A stretch of 57,370 nt of DNA. It comes from Flavobacteriaceae bacterium. Its GTDB lineage: Bacteria; Bacteroidota; Bacteroidia; Flavobacteriales; Weeksellaceae. Both the position numbers and the translations under genes were made by a program. Within the stretch, counting starts at the first letter, position 1; each line of letters begins with the position of its first letter. The stretch lies in contig JAGLAZ010000009.1 in the NCBI GenBank assembly GCA_018260565.1, positions 1 through 57,370 of the forward strand. The letters are read 5' to 3'. Shown here in pieces: positions 47,744 to 57,306 of this stretch. The notes under the pieces were generated by a model that was given only the letters and a program-made list of their open reading frames with translations, was not told the origin of the DNA and did no database searches.

Positions 47744-50700
47744 GTGAAAACTCAAAAATACACCCCAAAAAATAATGTGAGAATAGTCACTGCTGCTGCC
47801 CTATTTGATGGGCATGACGCTGCTATAAATATTATGCGGCGTGTCATTCAAGGCTCTGGTGTAGAAGTTATTCATTTGGGCCATGACAAGTCTGCAGAAG
47901 AGGTGGTAAACTGTGCCGTTCAGGAAGACGCCAATGCTATTGCCTTAACATCCTACCAAGGCGGGCACAATGAATATTTTAAATACATCTATGATTTACT
48001 CCGTGAAAAAGGTGCTCCCCAAATCAAGATCTTCGGCGGTGGGGGCGGTGTAATTTTACCTCAAGAAATTAAAGAACTTATGGATTATGGGGTAGATCGA
48101 ATATACTCCCCAGATGATGGTAGAGAACTTGGATTGCAAGGTATGATAGATGATTTGGTTCAAAAATCAGATTTCCCCACAGGTGCAGAAGTAACTGTAT
48201 CAGATTTAGATTTAATAAAATTTGAAAACCCCAAAAGCATCGCTCAAGTAATTTCCGCAGTTGAAAACTTTTCGGATGAAAAGCAGGATTTGGTGGAAAC
48301 AATAAATAGTAGAGCAAAGGAATCCCAAATCCCAATTATAGGAATCACTGGAACTGGAGGCTCCGGAAAATCCTCTCTTACTGATGAACTAGTAAGACGT
48401 TTCCTACGCTCTAATCCTGGAAAAAAGATTGCGATTATTTCCATAGATCCTTCCAAAAAAAAGACAGGTGGCGCATTACTCGGAGACCGCATTCGCATGA
48501 ATGCAATAAATGATAGCAGAGTATATATGCGGTCTATGGCAACTCGTGAAAATAATGTTTCGGTATCTCCCTATATAAAATCTGCACTTAATATTTTAAA
48601 ACTAGCCCATCCCGACCTTATTATTCTAGAGACATCTGGAATAGGCCAAAGCGGTTCAGAGGTTGAAGATTTTGCAGATATTTCCATGTATGTGATGACC
48701 CCAGAATATGGAGCAGCAACACAGCTGGAAAAAATCGATATGCTGGATTACGCGGATCTTATTGCTCTTAATAAATCAGACAAACGCGGAGCTCAAGATG
48801 CGCTGCAAGCTGTTAAAAAACAATACCAGCGAAACCACCTCCTTTGGGAAACGGAATTGGATGCGATGCCCGTATATGCTACCAAGGCTTCGCAATTTAA
48901 TGATGTAGGAACTACGGAATTATTTAATGCTCTCGTATCTAACATAAGGGAAAAATATCCAAATATGGAAATAGCAACCTATGACGAGCACCATGTTCAG
49001 GAGGATACCGTTATTATTCCACCTAAGCGCGTACGCTACCTAAGTGAAATAGTAGAAACCAACAAACAGTATGACCAAAGTGTATCCCATCAAGCTAAAC
49101 TTGCTCGAAAACTATATCATATAGAAGGCATTAAAACTATATTGCCAGAAACTCAGCTATCCACTATAGAAACAGAATACAACAAGGCTGAGAAAGAACT
49201 GATACAAGAAAATATTGATTTTCTAAAAAACTGGGAAGATACCAAAGCTCAACTCTCTGGAGACAGTTTCTCCTATTTTGTAAGAGGAAAAGAAATACGG
49301 GTGGAAACCAATACCGAAAGCCTCTCCCATTTAAAAATACCCAAAATTGCCCTTCCTAAATACAGTGATTGGGGGGATCTTATTCAATGGAAAGGTCAGG
49401 AAAACTTACCAGGATCATTCCCCTACACTGCAGGAATTTATCCCTTTAAAAGAACGGGCGAAGATCCTACCCGTATGTTTGCTGGAGAAGGTGGCCCAGA
49501 GCGTACCAACCGCCGTTTCCATTATGTTTCGGCTGATATGCCAGCAAAAAGACTCTCTACTGCGTTTGACTCTGTTACCCTATATGGTCAAGATCCTGCT
49601 TTACCACCAGATATATATGGGAAAATAGGCAACGCGGGTGTCTCCATCGCAACATTAGATGATGCCAAAAAACTGTATTCGGGATTTGATTTGATAGATC
49701 CTATGACCTCTGTTTCCATGACCATTAATGGACCCGCTGCAATGCTCCTCGCTTTTTTCATGAACTCTGCTATTGATCAAAATTGTGAAAAATACATTGA
49801 AGAGCATCAACTTTGGCATCTGGTAGAGAAAAAATATTCAGAGAAATATGATAATCAAGGAGTTAAAAGACCTGAATATAATGGAGAATTACCACCTTCT
49901 AATAGCGGCTTAGGTTTACGACTTTTGGGCCTTACAGGAGACGAAATACTACCGGAAGAAGTTTATGCTAAAATCAAAGCAAATACCATTGCTAATGTCC
50001 GTGGTACCGTGCAGGCTGATATTTTAAAAGAAGACCAAGCCCAAAACACCTGCATCTTTTCCACAGAATTTGCTTTAAGACTAATGGGGGATGTGCAGGA
50101 ATATTTTATAAAGGAAAAAGTTCGGAATTTTTATTCAGTTTCTATATCGGGCTATCATATCGCAGAGGCAGGAGCCAACCCTATTTCTCAGCTTGCCTTT
50201 ACCCTTGCCAATGGCTTTACCTATGTGGAATATTATTTGAGCCGAAGTATGGATATTAATGATTTTGCCCCGAACCTCTCTTTCTTTTTTTCTAATGGAA
50301 TAGATCCGGAATATGCAGTGATAGGGCGTGTAGCACGCAGAGTTTGGGCCAAAGCTATGCGCGAAAAGTATCATGCTAATGAACGATCCCAGATGCTTAA
50401 ATACCACATCCAAACATCCGGAAGATCATTGCACGCACAGGAAATTGATTTTAATGATATTCGTACTACTTTGCAGGCCTTATATGCCATCTATGATAAC
50501 TGTAACTCCCTGCATACCAATGCCTATGACGAAGCTATTACTACACCCACGGAACAATCTGTAAGACGAGCCATGGCAATTCAGCTCATCATCAATAAAG
50601 AGTTAGGTTTGGCAAAAAATGAAAACCCTCTACAAGGTTCTTTCATAATAGAAGAACTTACTAATCTGGTAGAGGAAGCCGTTTATGCAGAATTTGATCG

Positions 50701-51100
50701 TATTACGGAGCGAGGTGGCGTTCTAGGAGCAATGGAAACGATGTACCAACGCTCGAAAATCCAAGAGGAGTCTATGTACTACGAATGGCTGAAACATACA
50801 GGAGAATATCCTATCATTGGTGTCAATACTTTCCTTGGGAAAGATGGCTCCCCTACGGTGCTGCCAGGAGAGGTAATCCGCTCCACTGAGGAAGAAAAGA
50901 GGCAGCAAATTACCAATCTTCAAAATTTTCAACAAACAAGTGCTGAAAAAACTGCTTACTGGCTTAGAAAACTCCAAGATGCAGCCATAAATCAAGAAAA
51001 CCTTTTCAATGTGATGATGGATGCAGTAAAGGTTTGCAGTTTGGGCCAAATTACCAATGCGTTGTTTGAGGTGGGTGGGAAGTATAGAAGAAATATGTAA
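47744..51100 (+). CDS. icmF: Fused isobutyryl-CoA mutase IcmF
   Basis: 1118 aa starting at GTG. Three modules: a B12-binding domain (about 1-140, with [13 protein letters not shown] and SYQGGHNEY; the usual DxHxxG reads DGHDAA), a MeaB-like P-loop GTPase chaperone (about 190-420, [12 protein letters not shown]), and the substrate-binding mutase barrel (about 545-1110, [46 protein letters not shown]). IcmF interconverts isobutyryl-CoA and n-butyryl-CoA and self-loads its cofactor. It depends on adenosylcobalamin. Monocistronic. Substrate range (isovaleryl/pivalyl) cannot be told by eye. Confidence 0.93.
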
Positions 51101-51354: not shown

Positions 51355-51942
51355 ATGACTACAAATAGATTAGAAGCCTTTAGTGATGGCGTTCTTGCGA
51401 TCGTAATTACCGTTATGGTACTTGAGCTTAAGGTTCCTGAAGGAGTCACATTTGAATCATTAAAACCCCTTTTTCCTAAATTTTTATCTTATTTATTTAG
51501 TTTTATTTATGTAGGAATTTATTGGAATAATCATCATCATTTATTTCAAGCAACTGAAAAAACGAATGGCAACATTTTGTTATCCAATCTTCATTTATTA
51601 TTTTGGCTATCACTCATTCCATTTACCACAGGCTGGTTGGGAGAAAGTAACTTCTCTAAAAATCCTACTACTTTATACTGTTTTATCCTTTTAATGTCTG
51701 CGGTTTCATTTTTATTACTGGAGAAAAGCGTCATACGATTTATAGGAAAAGAAACTAAAATTGCTACCGCACTCGGCAAATATAAAAAAGAAAAAATATC
51801 GCTGCTACTCTATTCATTTAGTTTTCTGTTATCCTTCTTTTTGCCTGCTATTAGCATTATCATCGTTTACGCATGTGCAATTCTTTGGATAATTCCTGAT
51901 AAGCGAATTGAAAAAATTATGCATCAAAATAATGATATATAA
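51355..51942 (+). CDS. TMEM175 (DUF1211) family channel-like membrane protein
   Basis: 195 aa with several hydrophobic segments. The first holds RLEAFSDGVLAIVITVMVLEL, where the FSD motif defines the family; YWNNHHHLF is the second conserved stretch. Bacterial TMEM175 homologues form potassium-permeable channels. Single gene; AT-rich gaps on both sides. Confidence 0.9.
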   Translation: MTTNRLEAFSDGVLAIVITVMVLELKVPEGVTFESLKPLFPKFLSYLFSFIYVGIYWNNHHHLFQATEKTNGNILLSNLHLLFWLSLIPFTTGWLGESNFSKNPTTLYCFILLMSAVSFLLLEKSVIRFIGKETKIATALGKYKKEKISLLLYSFSFLLSFFLPAISIIIVYACAILWIIPDKRIEKIMHQNNDI

Positions 51943-52469: not shown

Positions 52470-53030
52470 ATGGAATTAAATAATGAAAAAATAATATTAG
52501 GAATAGACCCAGGAACCAGCATTATGGGATTTGGTATTATTTCTATTATCAAAAATAAAATGCAGATGGTTTCTATCCATGAATTAATATTAAATAAATA
52601 CCCCAATCACGAAACAAAACTTAAGTACATTTTTGAAAGAACACTTGCGCTTATCGATGAGTTTCACCCAGATGAAGTAGCTTTAGAGGCTCCTTTTTTT
52701 GGAAAAAATGTACAGAGTATGCTGAAACTTGGGCGTGCACAAGGCGTAGCGATGGCTGCCTCCCTTCATAGAGATGTCCCCATCACAGAATATTCCCCCA
52801 AAAAAGTAAAAATGGCCATTACAGGAAACGGGAATGCCAGCAAAGAGCAGGTGGCGGGAATGCTACAACATCTTTTACAACTAGAAGAGTTCCCTACCAA
52901 ATACCTGGATGCCTCGGATGGTTTAGCTGTGGCAGTTTGCCATCATTTTAATTCTGGAACGGTAGCTTCCGATAAAAAATACACAGGCTGGGATTCTTTT
53001 GTAAAAAATAATCCTAACCGATTAAAATAA
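52470..53030 (+). CDS. ruvC: Crossover junction endodeoxyribonuclease RuvC
   Basis: 186 aa from the ATG at 52470 (MELNNEKIILGIDPGT). Resolves Holliday junctions. The acidic active site is seen as Asp in GIDPG, Glu in ALEAPFF and the Asp pair in DASDGLAVAVCHH. It is followed after only 4 bp by the Clp/M41 gene, so the two are likely cotranscribed. RuvA and RuvB are not in the window. Confidence 0.95.
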   Translation: MELNNEKIILGIDPGTSIMGFGIISIIKNKMQMVSIHELILNKYPNHETKLKYIFERTLALIDEFHPDEVALEAPFFGKNVQSMLKLGRAQGVAMAASLHRDVPITEYSPKKVKMAITGNGNASKEQVAGMLQHLLQLEEFPTKYLDASDGLAVAVCHHFNSGTVASDKKYTGWDSFVKNNPNRLK

Positions 53031-53034
53031 TCTT

Positions 53035-54909
53035 ATGAACATCAACAAAGAGGAGGTCTTCCGAAAGAAGGAAATTTTGGATGAATGCAAAGTATATCTT
53101 AAAAATGAATTTATAGGGATAGATGCCATTATAGATAATCTTATGGACTACATCGCGGTGTGGTATCTTATGCCAGAACTTTTAAGAAGACCTGTAATTA
53201 TCAACTTATGGGGAATGACGGGTGTAGGTAAAACGGATCTTATCCGGAAATTGGTTAAATTTTTACACTTTCAAGAAAGATTTTTGGAAATGGAGCTCAG
53301 TAACAAAGACAGTTCCTCATGGGAAAATAGTGTTGCCGATATTTTTGATAGAAATAATTTAGGAGATGGCTTACCTGGCATTGTTTTATTTGATGAGATA
53401 CAAAGATTTAATACCATAGACTCCAATGGGGAACCTGAACCTCAAACCAAGTTTATAGACTTTTGGGAACTTCTTAGTGATGGGAAATTAAGTCAAAAAT
53501 ATAAGGAGCGGATGGAAAATCAATTCATCAATCTTATTTTAAGGAAAAAGGAAAGTGACAAGCATAAAATTACAGATGTTTCTCACCCAAATCCGGATAC
53601 CGATTCTTTCTTAACCTACTATGAGACTCTGGAACTCAAAAAATATCTCAGGCTCCCACACAGTGTGGAGGATCTTACTGAAATGAATGCTGAGGAAATC
53701 ACTCAGCTAATCTATGAATCTAAAAGCAAGAAAAAAATCTACGAACCTATAGATTATAGCAAAATACTCCTCATTATCAGCGGTAACCTGGATGAGGCCT
53801 TCAGTATGGCTCAGCAGACGAGTGAAGCAGATGTAGATGCAGATATTTTCCATGCCTTTACCGAAAAAATCACATTCGTAGATATTAAAAATGCATTGAG
53901 CAAGAAATTCCGTCCAGAACAGGTATCACGCTTCGGTAATATCCACCTTATCTATAATTCACTTAGAAAATCAGATTTTGAAACCTTGATCCATAAAGAA
54001 ATTAGCATTCGCCAAAATGAAATTTTAAAGGAATATGGCATTCATTTGCAGGTAACTAATTCCTTGGAGCGCTTAATTTACCGTAATGGTGTATTCCCTG
54101 TGCAAGGTGTACGGCCAGTATTTAGTAGTATTACTGATATTTTAGATTCTAATTTCAGTAAATTACTGTTTATCGCATTGATGAATCATGCTAAAGATCT
54201 TAGTATAGATTATGATGAATCCCAAAATATAATTAAAGCCAAAATAGGGGATGAATTTACCGAAATACCTTTTATCGGGAGAGTAGATAAAATCCGGCAA
54301 GCCAACGAAAAAGATATGCTTGCCAGCATAAGCGTACATGAATGTGGCCACGCCGTGGCCTATGTAATGCTGACTGGTATGGTGCCTCTCCAGCTAAAAA
54401 GCCGGGTAGCTAGCAGCAATGCAGCAGGATTTACCTTCCCGCACCAAATGCATAATTCCGCTGAAATCCTTATAAAGAAGATCCAAATATATCTCGCTGG
54501 AGGCATTGCAGAGGAGTTGATTTTTGGAAAAGAAAATGCGTCGGCAGGAAGGCAATCCGATAGAGAGGAGGCTATGGGATTAGCAGCAGATTATATCCGA
54601 ACTTATAATTTTGACCCTAATTTCCAAGCCAACTATTCAATAGAACATTATCCCCACCGGATGACTCAACAATCTACAGACGGGGTCATAGAACAAATGA
54701 TGCAGGATTTAGTGGAAAAAACCAGAATACTACTTGAAAGCAAAATGGATTTTTTACAAGCATTAAGCCGAGCATTGGCAGAAAAAGGAAGTCTAAATCC
54801 GCCAGAAATAATCTCTATTGCAAATGATTTCCACCTATCAGCAGTAATACAAGAAGAAGGCTTCCTGTATTGTAACGCCTATGATTTGCAATTAAAAAAT
54901 AATAAGTAG
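53035..54909 (+). CDS. Clp/HSP100-type AAA+ module fused to an FtsH-type M41 zinc peptidase
   Basis: 624 aa, no signal peptide and no membrane segment. AAA+ part (about 1-400): Walker A GMTGVGKT at 60-67, Walker B IVLFDE at 116-121, sensor 1 region LLIISGN at 245-251, then FRPEQVSRF (292-300, Arg299 as a candidate arginine finger) and a C-domain ending in GVRP (358-361, sensor-2 position). That last part follows ClpB/ClpX-style modules, not FtsH. Peptidase part (about 430-600): HECGH (435-439) is the HExxH zinc site, AGFTFP, GGIAEELIFG and SD509 as third ligand, 70 residues on, as in FtsH (M41). FtsH itself has two TM helices and a different AAA subtype. It lies 4 bp after ruvC. I do not recall a described protein with this layout. 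Confidence 0.85.
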   Translation: MNINKEEVFRKKEILDECKVYLKNEFIGIDAIIDNLMDYIAVWYLMPELLRRPVIINLWGMTGVGKTDLIRKLVKFLHFQERFLEMELSNKDSSSWENSVADIFDRNNLGDGLPGIVLFDEIQRFNTIDSNGEPEPQTKFIDFWELLSDGKLSQKYKERMENQFINLILRKKESDKHKITDVSHPNPDTDSFLTYYETLELKKYLRLPHSVEDLTEMNAEEITQLIYESKSKKKIYEPIDYSKILLIISGNLDEAFSMAQQTSEADVDADIFHAFTEKITFVDIKNALSKKFRPEQVSRFGNIHLIYNSLRKSDFETLIHKEISIRQNEILKEYGIHLQVTNSLERLIYRNGVFPVQGVRPVFSSITDILDSNFSKLLFIALMNHAKDLSIDYDESQNIIKAKIGDEFTEIPFIGRVDKIRQANEKDMLASISVHECGHAVAYVMLTGMVPLQLKSRVASSNAAGFTFPHQMHNSAEILIKKIQIYLAGGIAEELIFGKENASAGRQSDREEAMGLAADYIRTYNFDPNFQANYSIEHYPHRMTQQSTDGVIEQMMQDLVEKTRILLESKMDFLQALSRALAEKGSLNPPEIISIANDFHLSAVIQEEGFLYCNAYDLQLKNNK

Positions 54910-55180: not shown

Positions 55181-56257
55181 TTATTTTCCGCTTTTTCTTC
55201 GGTTATCTTCTTTACACAACATTTGGCAATTTTCGGCAGTTGTTTTTCCGCCTGAATGCCAAGGGTCAATATGGTCTGCCTCCATTTCGTTGATTTCAAA
55301 ATGTTCTTTGCAAACAGGACAAATTCCTTTCTGTCTTTCGTAGGCTTCTCGTTTCTGATTTGGACTAAATGCTCTAATGTTTAGAAATTTTTCTTTTCTG
55401 GTCAATACATAAGTGTAAATACCTTTCTTGTTCTGAACATCTTCGTCAAGCATAAGTTCAGTAATTTCTTCTTCGAGTTTCTTTGAGTCAAATTTTTGCT
55501 CTTTAAATTCATTGTAGAAAACTCCCCATTTCAAGCCTTTCATTTCTTTGCGATATTTTGGGAAAGTTGCTTTTACCCAACTTATTACTGCTTGAAAATA
55601 AAGCCAAAGTTCGTTTGCGTTTGGTTCGTGTTGGTTTTTTGACATATAGTCCTCAATCTTACCTTCCGAAATCCAATCTATTGCAGTTTCTAAATACTCT
55701 TGTCTATTTGCTGAACCAGATAAATATTCATCACCAATTTTAGGTCTGCTATTTTTTGAAAAATAACGTTTTGCATCTGAAACCCAAGAACCTGAATAAA
55801 CTGCATTTCTCAATTCTTGTTTTGTCAAAACTTTTCCTGCAATATTAATAGTTTCAAACCAATCTAACTTCTCGCTATCCGTTCCTGAACAGTAATAAAC
55901 CATTAAAGTGTAATCAAGTATTTGCTCTTGTTTATCTTTTGGTAAATTATGAAAAGCTAAACCATCAATTGAAAAATCGCCTTTTACATATTGGCAAATT
56001 GATATCGTTCTCTGTTGTCCGTCTATAACTTCAAAATCGCCGTCTTCACGAACTGCCCAATACATTACATTTAATGGAAAGTTTTTTTGTAGAGTATTTA
56101 AAACTGCGTTTCTTTCCTTCTCATCATAAACAAATTCACGTTGATATGGTGGACGAATATCTAATTTACCTTCAAAACCAACAACCCCATTTTCATTATT
56201 ATCTTGATAACCGTTTGTTAATTCACTGACTTTAATTTCTTTAAGTTCTATGTTCAT
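55181..56257 (-). CDS. DUF262 and HNH domain nuclease
   Basis: 358 aa. N-terminal DUF262 (ParB/sulfiredoxin-like NTPase fold) with the signature DGQQRT at about residue 78 and the IRPPYQREFVYDE block. C-terminal HNH nuclease (about 310-358): CPVCKEHF, EADHIDPWHSGGKTTAENCQ, LCKEDN, with zinc-finger cysteines and the catalytic His. Related to the GmrS/GmrD type and other DUF262-HNH restriction proteins. Its start overlaps the methyltransferase stop by 4 bp, so the two are translated together; predicted restriction component. Confidence 0.88.
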   Translation of the reverse strand: MNIELKEIKVSELTNGYQDNNENGVVGFEGKLDIRPPYQREFVYDEKERNAVLNTLQKNFPLNVMYWAVREDGDFEVIDGQQRTISICQYVKGDFSIDGLAFHNLPKDKQEQILDYTLMVYYCSGTDSEKLDWFETINIAGKVLTKQELRNAVYSGSWVSDAKRYFSKNSRPKIGDEYLSGSANRQEYLETAIDWISEGKIEDYMSKNQHEPNANELWLYFQAVISWVKATFPKYRKEMKGLKWGVFYNEFKEQKFDSKKLEEEITELMLDEDVQNKKGIYTYVLTRKEKFLNIRAFSPNQKREAYERQKGICPVCKEHFEINEMEADHIDPWHSGGKTTAENCQMLCKEDNRRKSGK

Positions 56258-57306
56258 AGTTTTTTGTTCTTTATTATTATACGAGCATAAGGAACTGTAA
56301 CTTCACCACTTATCATCATATAAAGGTCTCCATCTACTGCACCTCTTTTTTGGACTTTTTTTCTGTATATTTTATGCTCTTTTGTGTATGGTTTTACCCC
56401 TATTTCAATACCTGAATTAGATATTCCCAAGCCAATAATCTCAAATTGATCAGGATTATATTTGTCTAAAAATGTAATTGGAACACCCATAAAACCATCA
56501 TAGTCAATAGGTATATCTTTTGTTTTATCAACATTAATTGCATTGAAATTCTCGTAACTTGGGTAATCTTGTGAGTTATATTTCTTGTATAAAATTAAAT
56601 CTTCGTGTCTTTTTGAAATGTCAAGATTTGTAAACCAATGAACTCCTGAAACCCTAATCATACCTTCTTTGTGGTCGCCTGCTGTTGCATAATCTTCGTA
56701 TTGCGTATTAATAAAATGTCCTGCACCACCTTTAAAACCATAACCAAGCCATAAATTATTCTCTTTTATTAACTTAAATATTTCTTTGTATGAAATTGCG
56801 TTTTGGTGACCTACAATTACGAATTTTTTATCATATTCGATAAGTTGAGCTATAAATTCTCTAAAAAGTGAGAAAGGTGGGTTTGTAACGATAATATCAG
56901 CTTGTTTTAGAAGTTCAATACTTTCGGCACTTCTAAAATCGCCATCGCCATTTAGTTCAATAATTCCAATTTCTTCTGGGTCTGGAACACTATTTCCGTT
57001 TCTATCGCCATAATATTCTAAATAGATAGCTTTTTCAGAATCGTTTTGGCTAAATAAATCTGCATTTTGGTTTTTGTAACAAGTAGCAATTAATTTTTTA
57101 AGTCCTAAATGTTCAAAATTGTATGAAAAATAATGAAAGAAATTACTAACTCTTGGGTCATCGCAATTACAGTAAACTACTTTGTTTTTAAAGTGTTCTT
57201 TGTAATGTCTTAATTCGTTTTCTATGTCGGAAAGTTGAGTATAAAACTCGTCTTTTTTATTGTTTTTCGCTTGGTGTAAATTTTTGTTTTTCGCTTTTGT
57301 AGCCAT
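56254..57306 (-). CDS. M.EcoRI-family adenine-specific DNA methyltransferase
   Basis: 350 aa. N-terminal KKDEFYTQLSDIENELRHYK, then VVYCNCDDPRVSNFFHYF (SAM-binding region) and TNPPFSLFRE (catalytic NPPF at 142-145). This is the EcoRI-type N6-adenine methyltransferase family. It likely protects host DNA at a specific site; which site is not known. It is first in the two-gene unit with the DUF262-HNH nuclease and ends 4 bp into it. The upstream 64 bp to the window edge are AT-rich without a clear consensus promoter. Confidence 0.92.
   Translation of the reverse strand: MATKAKNKNLHQAKNNKKDEFYTQLSDIENELRHYKEHFKNKVVYCNCDDPRVSNFFHYFSYNFEHLGLKKLIATCYKNQNADLFSQNDSEKAIYLEYYGDRNGNSVPDPEEIGIIELNGDGDFRSAESIELLKQADIIVTNPPFSLFREFIAQLIEYDKKFVIVGHQNAISYKEIFKLIKENNLWLGYGFKGGAGHFINTQYEDYATAGDHKEGMIRVSGVHWFTNLDISKRHEDLILYKKYNSQDYPSYENFNAINVDKTKDIPIDYDGFMGVPITFLDKYNPDQFEIIGLGISNSGIEIGVKPYTKEHKIYRKKVQKRGAVDGDLYMMISGEVTVPYARIIIKNKKL

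What the first reader, a model, noticed from the sequence alone, without database searches (positions are those of the whole stretch)
53035..54909. A soluble Clp-type AAA+ unfoldase fused to an FtsH-type zinc peptidase, downstream of ruvC
Seen: Walker A/B and a Clp-style C-domain (RPEQVSRF, GVRP) followed by HECGH and a distal Asp (SD509) spaced 70 residues from the second His, close to the H-to-D spacing of FtsH. No TM segment is seen. Known: M41 peptidases are normally part of membrane-bound FtsH, while Clp-type AAA+ proteins normally recruit a separate ClpP-like chamber. Inference: a self-contained cytosolic protease that combines two families, possibly linked to DNA repair through its place 4 bp after ruvC.
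Basis: partly seen in the sequence, partly recalled or inferred. Interest (0 to 1): 0.85.

Follow-up and report, generated by a model that had tools for sequence, protein, structure and literature searches.

The report
Soluble Clp-M41 fusion protease, phage-linked
This gene encodes an unnamed kind of cell-interior shredding machine, in which a Clp-type motor that pulls proteins apart is joined directly to the zinc cutting blade otherwise found in the membrane protease FtsH; the same fusion is common in very large bacteriophages and scattered across bacteria.

Summary
ORF 53035-54909 (+) is 624 aa. Residues 3-412 are a single Clp/Hsp100 D2-type AAA+ module. Residues 423-609 are a complete FtsH-type M41 zinc peptidase domain with HECGH and D509. 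No transmembrane segment is predicted. It is not FtsH: the FtsH profile matches only the M41 part, and the Clp profile only the AAA part. No Pfam, NCBIfam or PHROG model and no PDB chain spans both. The own genome also has an ordinary FtsH.

The fusion is a real family. I found 84 bacterial loci and 75 large-virus loci (60 distinct proteins). All 117 aligned sequences keep the Walker B, sensor, arginine-finger, zinc-ligand and catalytic residues. Many viral records are 100-550 kb, and 14 of 47 carry a terminase. The family is rare and patchy in bacteria (5 of 395 Bacteroidota genomes sampled).

The suggested DNA-repair link is not supported. ruvC is a single housekeeping gene, and the fusion follows it in 1 of 30 relatives examined.

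Most likely it is a self-contained, ATP-driven, soluble zinc protease, spread by phages or horizontal transfer. Substrates are unknown. One Bacteroidota subclade sits beside WYL regulators in 12 of 17 loci, which hints at a stress or defence role there.

The parts
53035..54909 (+). Clp D2-type AAA+ / M41 fusion protease gene, 624 aa
   Evidence: ORF; conserved as one gene in 84 bacterial loci and 75 viral loci
53041..54255 (+). Clp/Hsp100 D2-type AAA+ module (residues 3-407)
   Evidence: VIA Z about 22 to ClpC/ClpB/Skd3; hhalign 98.7% over 293 columns to Clp D2 against 47% over 65 columns to FtsH AAA
53212..53235 (+). Walker A GMTGVGKT (residues 60-67)
   Evidence: sequence; K66 in 116 of 117 homologues, one gapped
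53296..53331 (+). shortened loop (residues 88-99) where Clp D2 has helix plus pore loop 1 (GYVG)
   Evidence: no GYVG-type motif; the Clp GAPPGYVGYEEGG segment is unmatched in the profile alignment; an aromatic lies in the loop in 99 of 117
53380..53397 (+). Walker B IVLFDE (residues 116-121)
   Evidence: D120 117/117, E121 116/117
53485..53751 (+). family-specific insert before sensor 1 (residues 151-239)
   Evidence: 80-181 residues long in all 117 members; low model confidence, pLDDT about 48-72
53785..53787 (+). sensor 1 Asn N251
   Evidence: 117/117
53929..53931 (+). putative arginine finger R299 (FRPEQVSRFG)
   Evidence: 117/117
54106..54117 (+). sensor 2 motif GVRP (R360), Clp-type
   Evidence: R360 117/117; ClpB_D2-small match 325-378
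54301..54861 (+). M41 peptidase domain (residues 423-609)
   Evidence: Pfam M41 1e-12; hhalign 99.7% to FtsH M41; VIA Z 20.5, rmsd 2.8, 180 residues to AFG3L2
54337..54351 (+). zinc/catalytic motif HECGH (residues 435-439)
   Evidence: H435, E436, H439 117/117
54511..54513 (+). conserved Glu E493 (AEE motif)
   Evidence: 117/117
54559..54561 (+). predicted third zinc ligand D509
   Evidence: aligned to the FtsH distal Asp; 117/117
52470..53030 (+). ruvC, housekeeping neighbour, not part of the protease system
   Evidence: Pfam RuvC 1.1e-40; one copy in 59 of 60 family genomes

Best explanation
The gene encodes a self-contained, soluble, ATP-driven zinc protease that carries both the motor and the blade in one chain. 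Inferred mechanism: subunits assemble into a ring through the Clp D2-type AAA+ module, which hydrolyses ATP with Walker A/B, sensor 1 N251, sensor 2 R360 and trans-acting R299. It unfolds and threads substrate into a chamber lined by the M41 domains, where zinc held by H435, H439 and D509, with E436 as base, cuts the peptide. It needs neither ClpP nor a membrane anchor. The shortened pore loop 1 and the family-specific insert before sensor 1 probably set how substrates are gripped or chosen. The gene is accessory and horizontally mobile, and belongs to a family common in large phages. Shown: both domain assignments, residue conservation, absence of a TM segment, distribution. Inferred: hexamer, threading, proteolysis. 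Unknown: substrates.
For: Domains: Pfam M41 over cut-off. The N-half matches Clp D2 over 293 columns but FtsH AAA only at the P-loop, and the C-half matches FtsH M41 with D509 on the FtsH Asp. A profile against the PDB hits FtsH chains only at 440-667 and Clp chains only at 13-99 or 253-440. Model pLDDT 85.5, pTM 0.78; residues 3-412 match ClpC/ClpB D2 at Z about 22, and 423-609 match AFG3L2 at Z 20.5. Active-site residues are invariant in 117 of 117. No TM. Family: 148 stretches in genome contigs encode a relative, 75 viral loci, 14 of 47 viral records with a terminase. The tree mixes phage and bacterial clades.
Against: No activity, oligomeric state or metal content has been measured for any member found here. 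The canonical GYVG pore loop is missing and the aromatic in the shortened loop is not at one fixed column, so processive threading is not assured. The single-chain model says nothing about a hexamer. The insert is modelled with low confidence.
Confidence: 0.8

Rival explanations
1. A remodelling or regulatory factor, not a processive degrader: the AAA+ module moves or opens specific partners and the M41 domain makes limited cuts, for example in phage assembly or activation of another protein.
For: The canonical Clp pore loop is absent and a large family-specific insert is present. Phages use limited proteolysis in maturation, and MoxR-vWA pairs with a fused metallopeptidase domain are reported in jumbo phages (PMC7824862).
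Against: Full conservation of AAA+ and peptidase residues fits a coupled machine equally well. The M41 domain is complete and like that of processive FtsH. No fixed phage structural neighbour was found.
Confidence: 0.25
2. A defence or counter-defence protease: in bacteria it is switched on during phage infection or stress, and in phages it removes host proteins. (This concerns the biological role and does not exclude the best explanation's mechanism.)
For: In one Bacteroidota subclade a WYL regulator lies within 4 genes in 12 of 17 loci, against about 0.06 WYL genes expected; GmrSD-type, PD-(D/E)XK, DUF2779 and GIY-YIG genes lie near some of them. Widespread in large phages.
Against: The window's own clade has no WYL or fixed partner, and most neighbours look like ordinary chromosomal genes. 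PADLOC gives only weak N-terminal hits to DolB and PDC-M37B.
Confidence: 0.35
3. A DNA-repair protease working with RuvC.
For: 4-bp spacing to ruvC in the window; ruvC lies 2-4 genes upstream in 16 of 29 Chryseobacterium loci.
Against: Directly after ruvC in only 1 of 30 family genomes; DUF4407 follows ruvC in 13 of 30, including genomes without the fusion, so this is a shared chromosomal site. No ruvC beside it in other clades or phages.
Confidence: 0.03
4. A diverged FtsH whose AAA part only looks Clp-like.
For: Same order of AAA then M41; the top Foldseek hits are YME1 and FtsH over the whole chain, though at TM about 0.4.
Against: FtsH AAA matches only 65 P-loop columns. The Clp sensor-2 Arg and D2 small domain are present and invariant. 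No TM. The genome has its own FtsH.
Confidence: 0.03

Closest known systems
FtsH / YME1 / AFG3L2 (AAA proteases, peptidase family M41)
   Same: One chain with AAA+ then an M41 zinc peptidase; HEXXH plus distal Asp; C-terminal helical part aligned
   Different: AAA+ is Clp D2-type, not FtsH-type; no transmembrane anchor; insert before sensor 1
ClpA/ClpC/ClpB second ring (D2), Hsp100
   Same: AAA+ large and small domains, FRPE..R and GxRP motifs, Z about 22
   Different: Single ring, no N-domain or D1, no GYVG pore loop, own fused peptidase instead of separate ClpP
FtsH-like protein of jumbo phage MIJ3 (PMC6892783)
   Same: A large-phage-encoded M41 protease
   Different: Described as an FtsH homologue grouping with bacterial FtsH; cultured-phage records gave no full-length match to our family
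DolB of the Dodola defence system (PADLOC)
   Same: Weak similarity over residues 12-124, E 1e-5
   Different: Match confined to the N-terminal AAA part; no M41 similarity seen

Membership tests
FtsH (M41 AAA protease) | M41 domain with HEXXH and distal Asp zinc ligand | tested here: met
   Pfam 1e-12; aligned; 117/117 conserved
FtsH (M41 AAA protease) | FtsH-type (classical clade) AAA module | tested here: not met
   47% and 65 columns to FtsH AAA against 98.7% and 293 columns to Clp D2; PDB profile hits to FtsH only at 440-667
FtsH (M41 AAA protease) | N-terminal transmembrane anchor | tested here: not met
   max KD19 1.22 against 2.66 in own FtsH
FtsH (M41 AAA protease) | NCBIfam FtsH_fam score over curated cut-off | tested here: not met
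   44.9 bits against 600
Clp/Hsp100 unfoldase | D2-type AAA+ with D2 small domain and sensor-2 Arg | tested here: met
Clp/Hsp100 unfoldase | Aromatic GYVG-type pore loop 1 | tested here: not met
   segment absent in alignment and no motif; a shorter loop with an aromatic in 99 of 117
Clp/Hsp100 unfoldase | Partner ClpP docking loop (IGF/LGF type) | tested here: not met
   no such motif in the AAA module (sequence)
Clp/Hsp100 unfoldase | Hexameric ring that threads substrate | not testable with these tools
   needs biochemistry or cryo-EM
Self-compartmentalising AAA+ protease (functional class) | ATPase and peptidase residues both intact | tested here: met
   117/117 for D120, N251, R299, R360, H435, E436, H439, D509
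Self-compartmentalising AAA+ protease (functional class) | ATP-dependent proteolysis in a closed chamber | not testable with these tools
   experiment needed
Known anti-phage defence system | Match to a described defence family over the whole protein | tested here: not met
   PADLOC only weak partial hits

The most novel reading that the evidence does not exclude
A further class of AAA+ protease beside ClpXP/ClpAP, HslUV, Lon and FtsH: a soluble AAA+ metalloprotease made by fusing a Clp D2 motor to an M41 blade, spread mainly by huge phages that use it to reshape or disarm the host proteome, and captured by bacteria, some of which place it under WYL control as a defence or stress protease.
Probability: 0.35. 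Interest if true: 0.85.

Novelty: new variant of a known kind. Interest (0 to 1): 0.72.

Why it matters
Textbook AAA+ proteases are either membrane-bound FtsH with a fused zinc blade, or soluble Clp/Hsl motors with a separate peptidase, or Lon. A natural Clp-motor/M41-blade chimera breaks that pairing and shows that motor and blade can be exchanged across AAA+ clades. It also gives a soluble single-chain system in which the coupling of Clp-type unfolding to M41 cutting can be tested without detergent or ClpP. Its spread in huge phages, unreported in the papers I could search, points to an unexamined phage tool for altering host proteins.

Tried and rejected
(1) FtsH with diverged AAA: rejected by profile comparison. 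(2) DNA-repair module with ruvC: rejected by synteny. (3) A membrane tether supplied in trans: DUF4407 precedes the gene in 29 of 29 Chryseobacterium loci, but it follows ruvC in genomes without the fusion and is absent from the window's genome. Upstream membrane proteins are not enriched: 0 of 12 bacterial, 4 of 32 phage, against 71 of 818 phage background genes. (4) Plasmid relatives: only ordinary FtsH-type M41 hits; the Brevibacillus one read through is a normal membrane FtsH. (5) Cultured phages: no full-length member. (6) Portal_T4 as a second viral hallmark: 1 of 32 records, uninformative. (7) One aromatic pore-loop position: no single column is conserved. (8) Literature searches found no description of the architecture; subscription papers were not searchable.

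Full report
What is there. The window (a whole contig, C11 of a 1.87 Mb genome) carries at 53035-54909 (+) one open reading frame of 624 aa that starts 4 bp after ruvC. No TM segment is predicted: the best Kyte-Doolittle 19-residue mean is 1.22, against 2.66 for the genome's own FtsH.

Which families the two halves belong to. Pfam places M41 at 431-594 (1e-12, over cut-off), AAA at 58-134, and below cut-off AAA_2 at 228-301 and ClpB_D2-small at 325-378. NCBIfam splits the same way: FtsH_fam only at 418-589 and far below its cut-off, ClpB only at 239-397. I aligned 52 relatives (A2) and compared profiles. Residues 1-411 match the Clp D2 module over 293 columns at 98.7%. Against the FtsH AAA domain they match only 65 P-loop columns at 47%. 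The C-terminal part matches FtsH M41 over 193 columns at 99.7%, with D509 on the FtsH distal Asp. A PDB-wide profile search agrees: FtsH chains are hit only at profile positions 440-667, Clp chains only at 13-99 or 253-440, and no chain spans both.

Structure. AlphaFold2 on A2 gave pLDDT 85.5 and pTM 0.78. VIA-align matched residues 3-412 to ClpC/ClpB/Skd3 at Z about 22, and 423-609 to the human m-AAA protease AFG3L2 at Z 20.5, rmsd 2.8 over 180 residues. Whole-chain Foldseek hits to YME1 and FtsH have TM only about 0.4, as expected if the domains are known but arranged differently. Two family features stand out. The Clp helix and GYVG pore loop are missing. An 80-181 residue insert precedes sensor 1 in all members; it is poorly modelled here.

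The family. A scan of 84,980 prokaryote species with two short peptide patterns found 148 stretches that encode relatives; 80 loci were kept, a lower bound. The window's clade (about 44-58% identical, about 620 aa) includes 29 Chryseobacterium loci, Cloacibacterium, Neolewinella, Arcicella/Flectobacillus, Thiothrix, Methylophaga, and actinomycete and planctomycete MAGs. A second group (about 27-33%, about 690 aa) is mostly Bacteroidota. It is rare: 5 of 395 sampled Bacteroidota genomes at E <= 1e-60. A scan of IMG/VR found 75 loci, all encoding full-length or nearly full-length proteins of 581-759 aa with the HEXXH motif, in records mostly of 50-550 kb. Fourteen of 47 tested records carry a Terminase_6N gene over cut-off, which supports viral identity for those; the others rest on IMG/VR's own classification. 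No cultured-phage record holds a full-length member. PHROGs matches only the two halves separately. Across 117 sequences (60 phage, 57 bacterial), D120, N251, R299, R360, H435, E436, H439, E493 and D509 never change. In a maximum-likelihood tree the window's clade of 23 bacterial rows forms one group with 41 phage rows (SH-aLRT 100). The other bacterial groups also sit among phage rows, and the phage/bacterium label needs 4 changes. The direction of transfer is not resolved, since the root is a midpoint.

Neighbourhood. ruvC is a normal single-copy gene (59 of 60 family genomes). In 30 ruvC loci of the family, DUF4407 lies downstream in 13 and the fusion follows directly only in the window. 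Chryseobacterium has DUF4407 then the fusion in 29 of 29 loci, with ruvC 2-4 genes upstream in 16 of them. The arrangement is therefore a shared chromosomal site rather than a repair module. In one Bacteroidota subclade a WYL regulator lies within 4 genes in 12 of 17 loci. WYL genes number 75 in 61 Bacteroidota genomes, so about 0.06 were expected (the expectation assumes about 3,000 genes per genome). DUF2779, GmrSD, PD-(D/E)XK and GIY-YIG genes lie near some of these. Phage copies sit among RNA ligase, tRNA-His guanylyltransferase, peptidyl-tRNA hydrolase-like and similar genes. Three have DnaK-like and DnaJ-like genes within 4 genes downstream (identified by sequence inspection).

How it most likely works. 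Inferred from the families: a ring of Clp D2-type motors unfolds protein with ATP and passes it to M41 zinc sites on the same chains, so neither ClpP nor a membrane is needed. Shown here are the parts and their conservation. Ring formation, threading and cutting are inference. The missing GYVG loop leaves open a limited-cutting or remodelling role.

Verdict. Its repair link is not supported. The unexpected point is the family's wide presence in large phages.

Noticed in passing
55181-57306 (-): A restriction-modification pair directly downstream: EcoRI-type adenine methylase (6.5e-139, GC 30% against 36% in the window) and a GmrSD_N/HNH endonuclease.
   Followed up: partly
L036, L037, L087, L090, L091, L095, L098, L100-L102, L106, L111: WYL-domain regulators lie within 4 genes of the fusion in 12 of 17 members of one Bacteroidota subclade, far above background.
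   Followed up: partly
L179, L183, L184 (viral contigs): DnaK-like and DnaJ-like genes lie within four genes downstream of the phage fusion gene, suggesting a phage-encoded chaperone/protease set.
   Followed up: no
L122, L133, L142, L159 (viral contigs): A 454-476 aa membrane protein lies directly upstream of the fusion gene; the L142 copy matches phrog_2087 (unknown function).
   Followed up: partly
L198-L203, L207-L210, L216, L220, L222: A DUF4407 membrane protein follows ruvC in 13 of 30 family genomes examined: conserved but unexplained synteny.
   Followed up: partly
47744-51100 (+): A 1118-aa ORF that by sequence looks like a fused B12-dependent acyl-CoA mutase (IcmF type); not searched.
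   Followed up: no
51355-51942 (+): TMEM175-type potassium channel domain protein (Pfam 1.3e-31).
   Followed up: no
G000:C22:950-1246 (L034): A second, weak RuvC-family match (27.7 bits) in a 148-aa open frame of the same genome.
   Followed up: no
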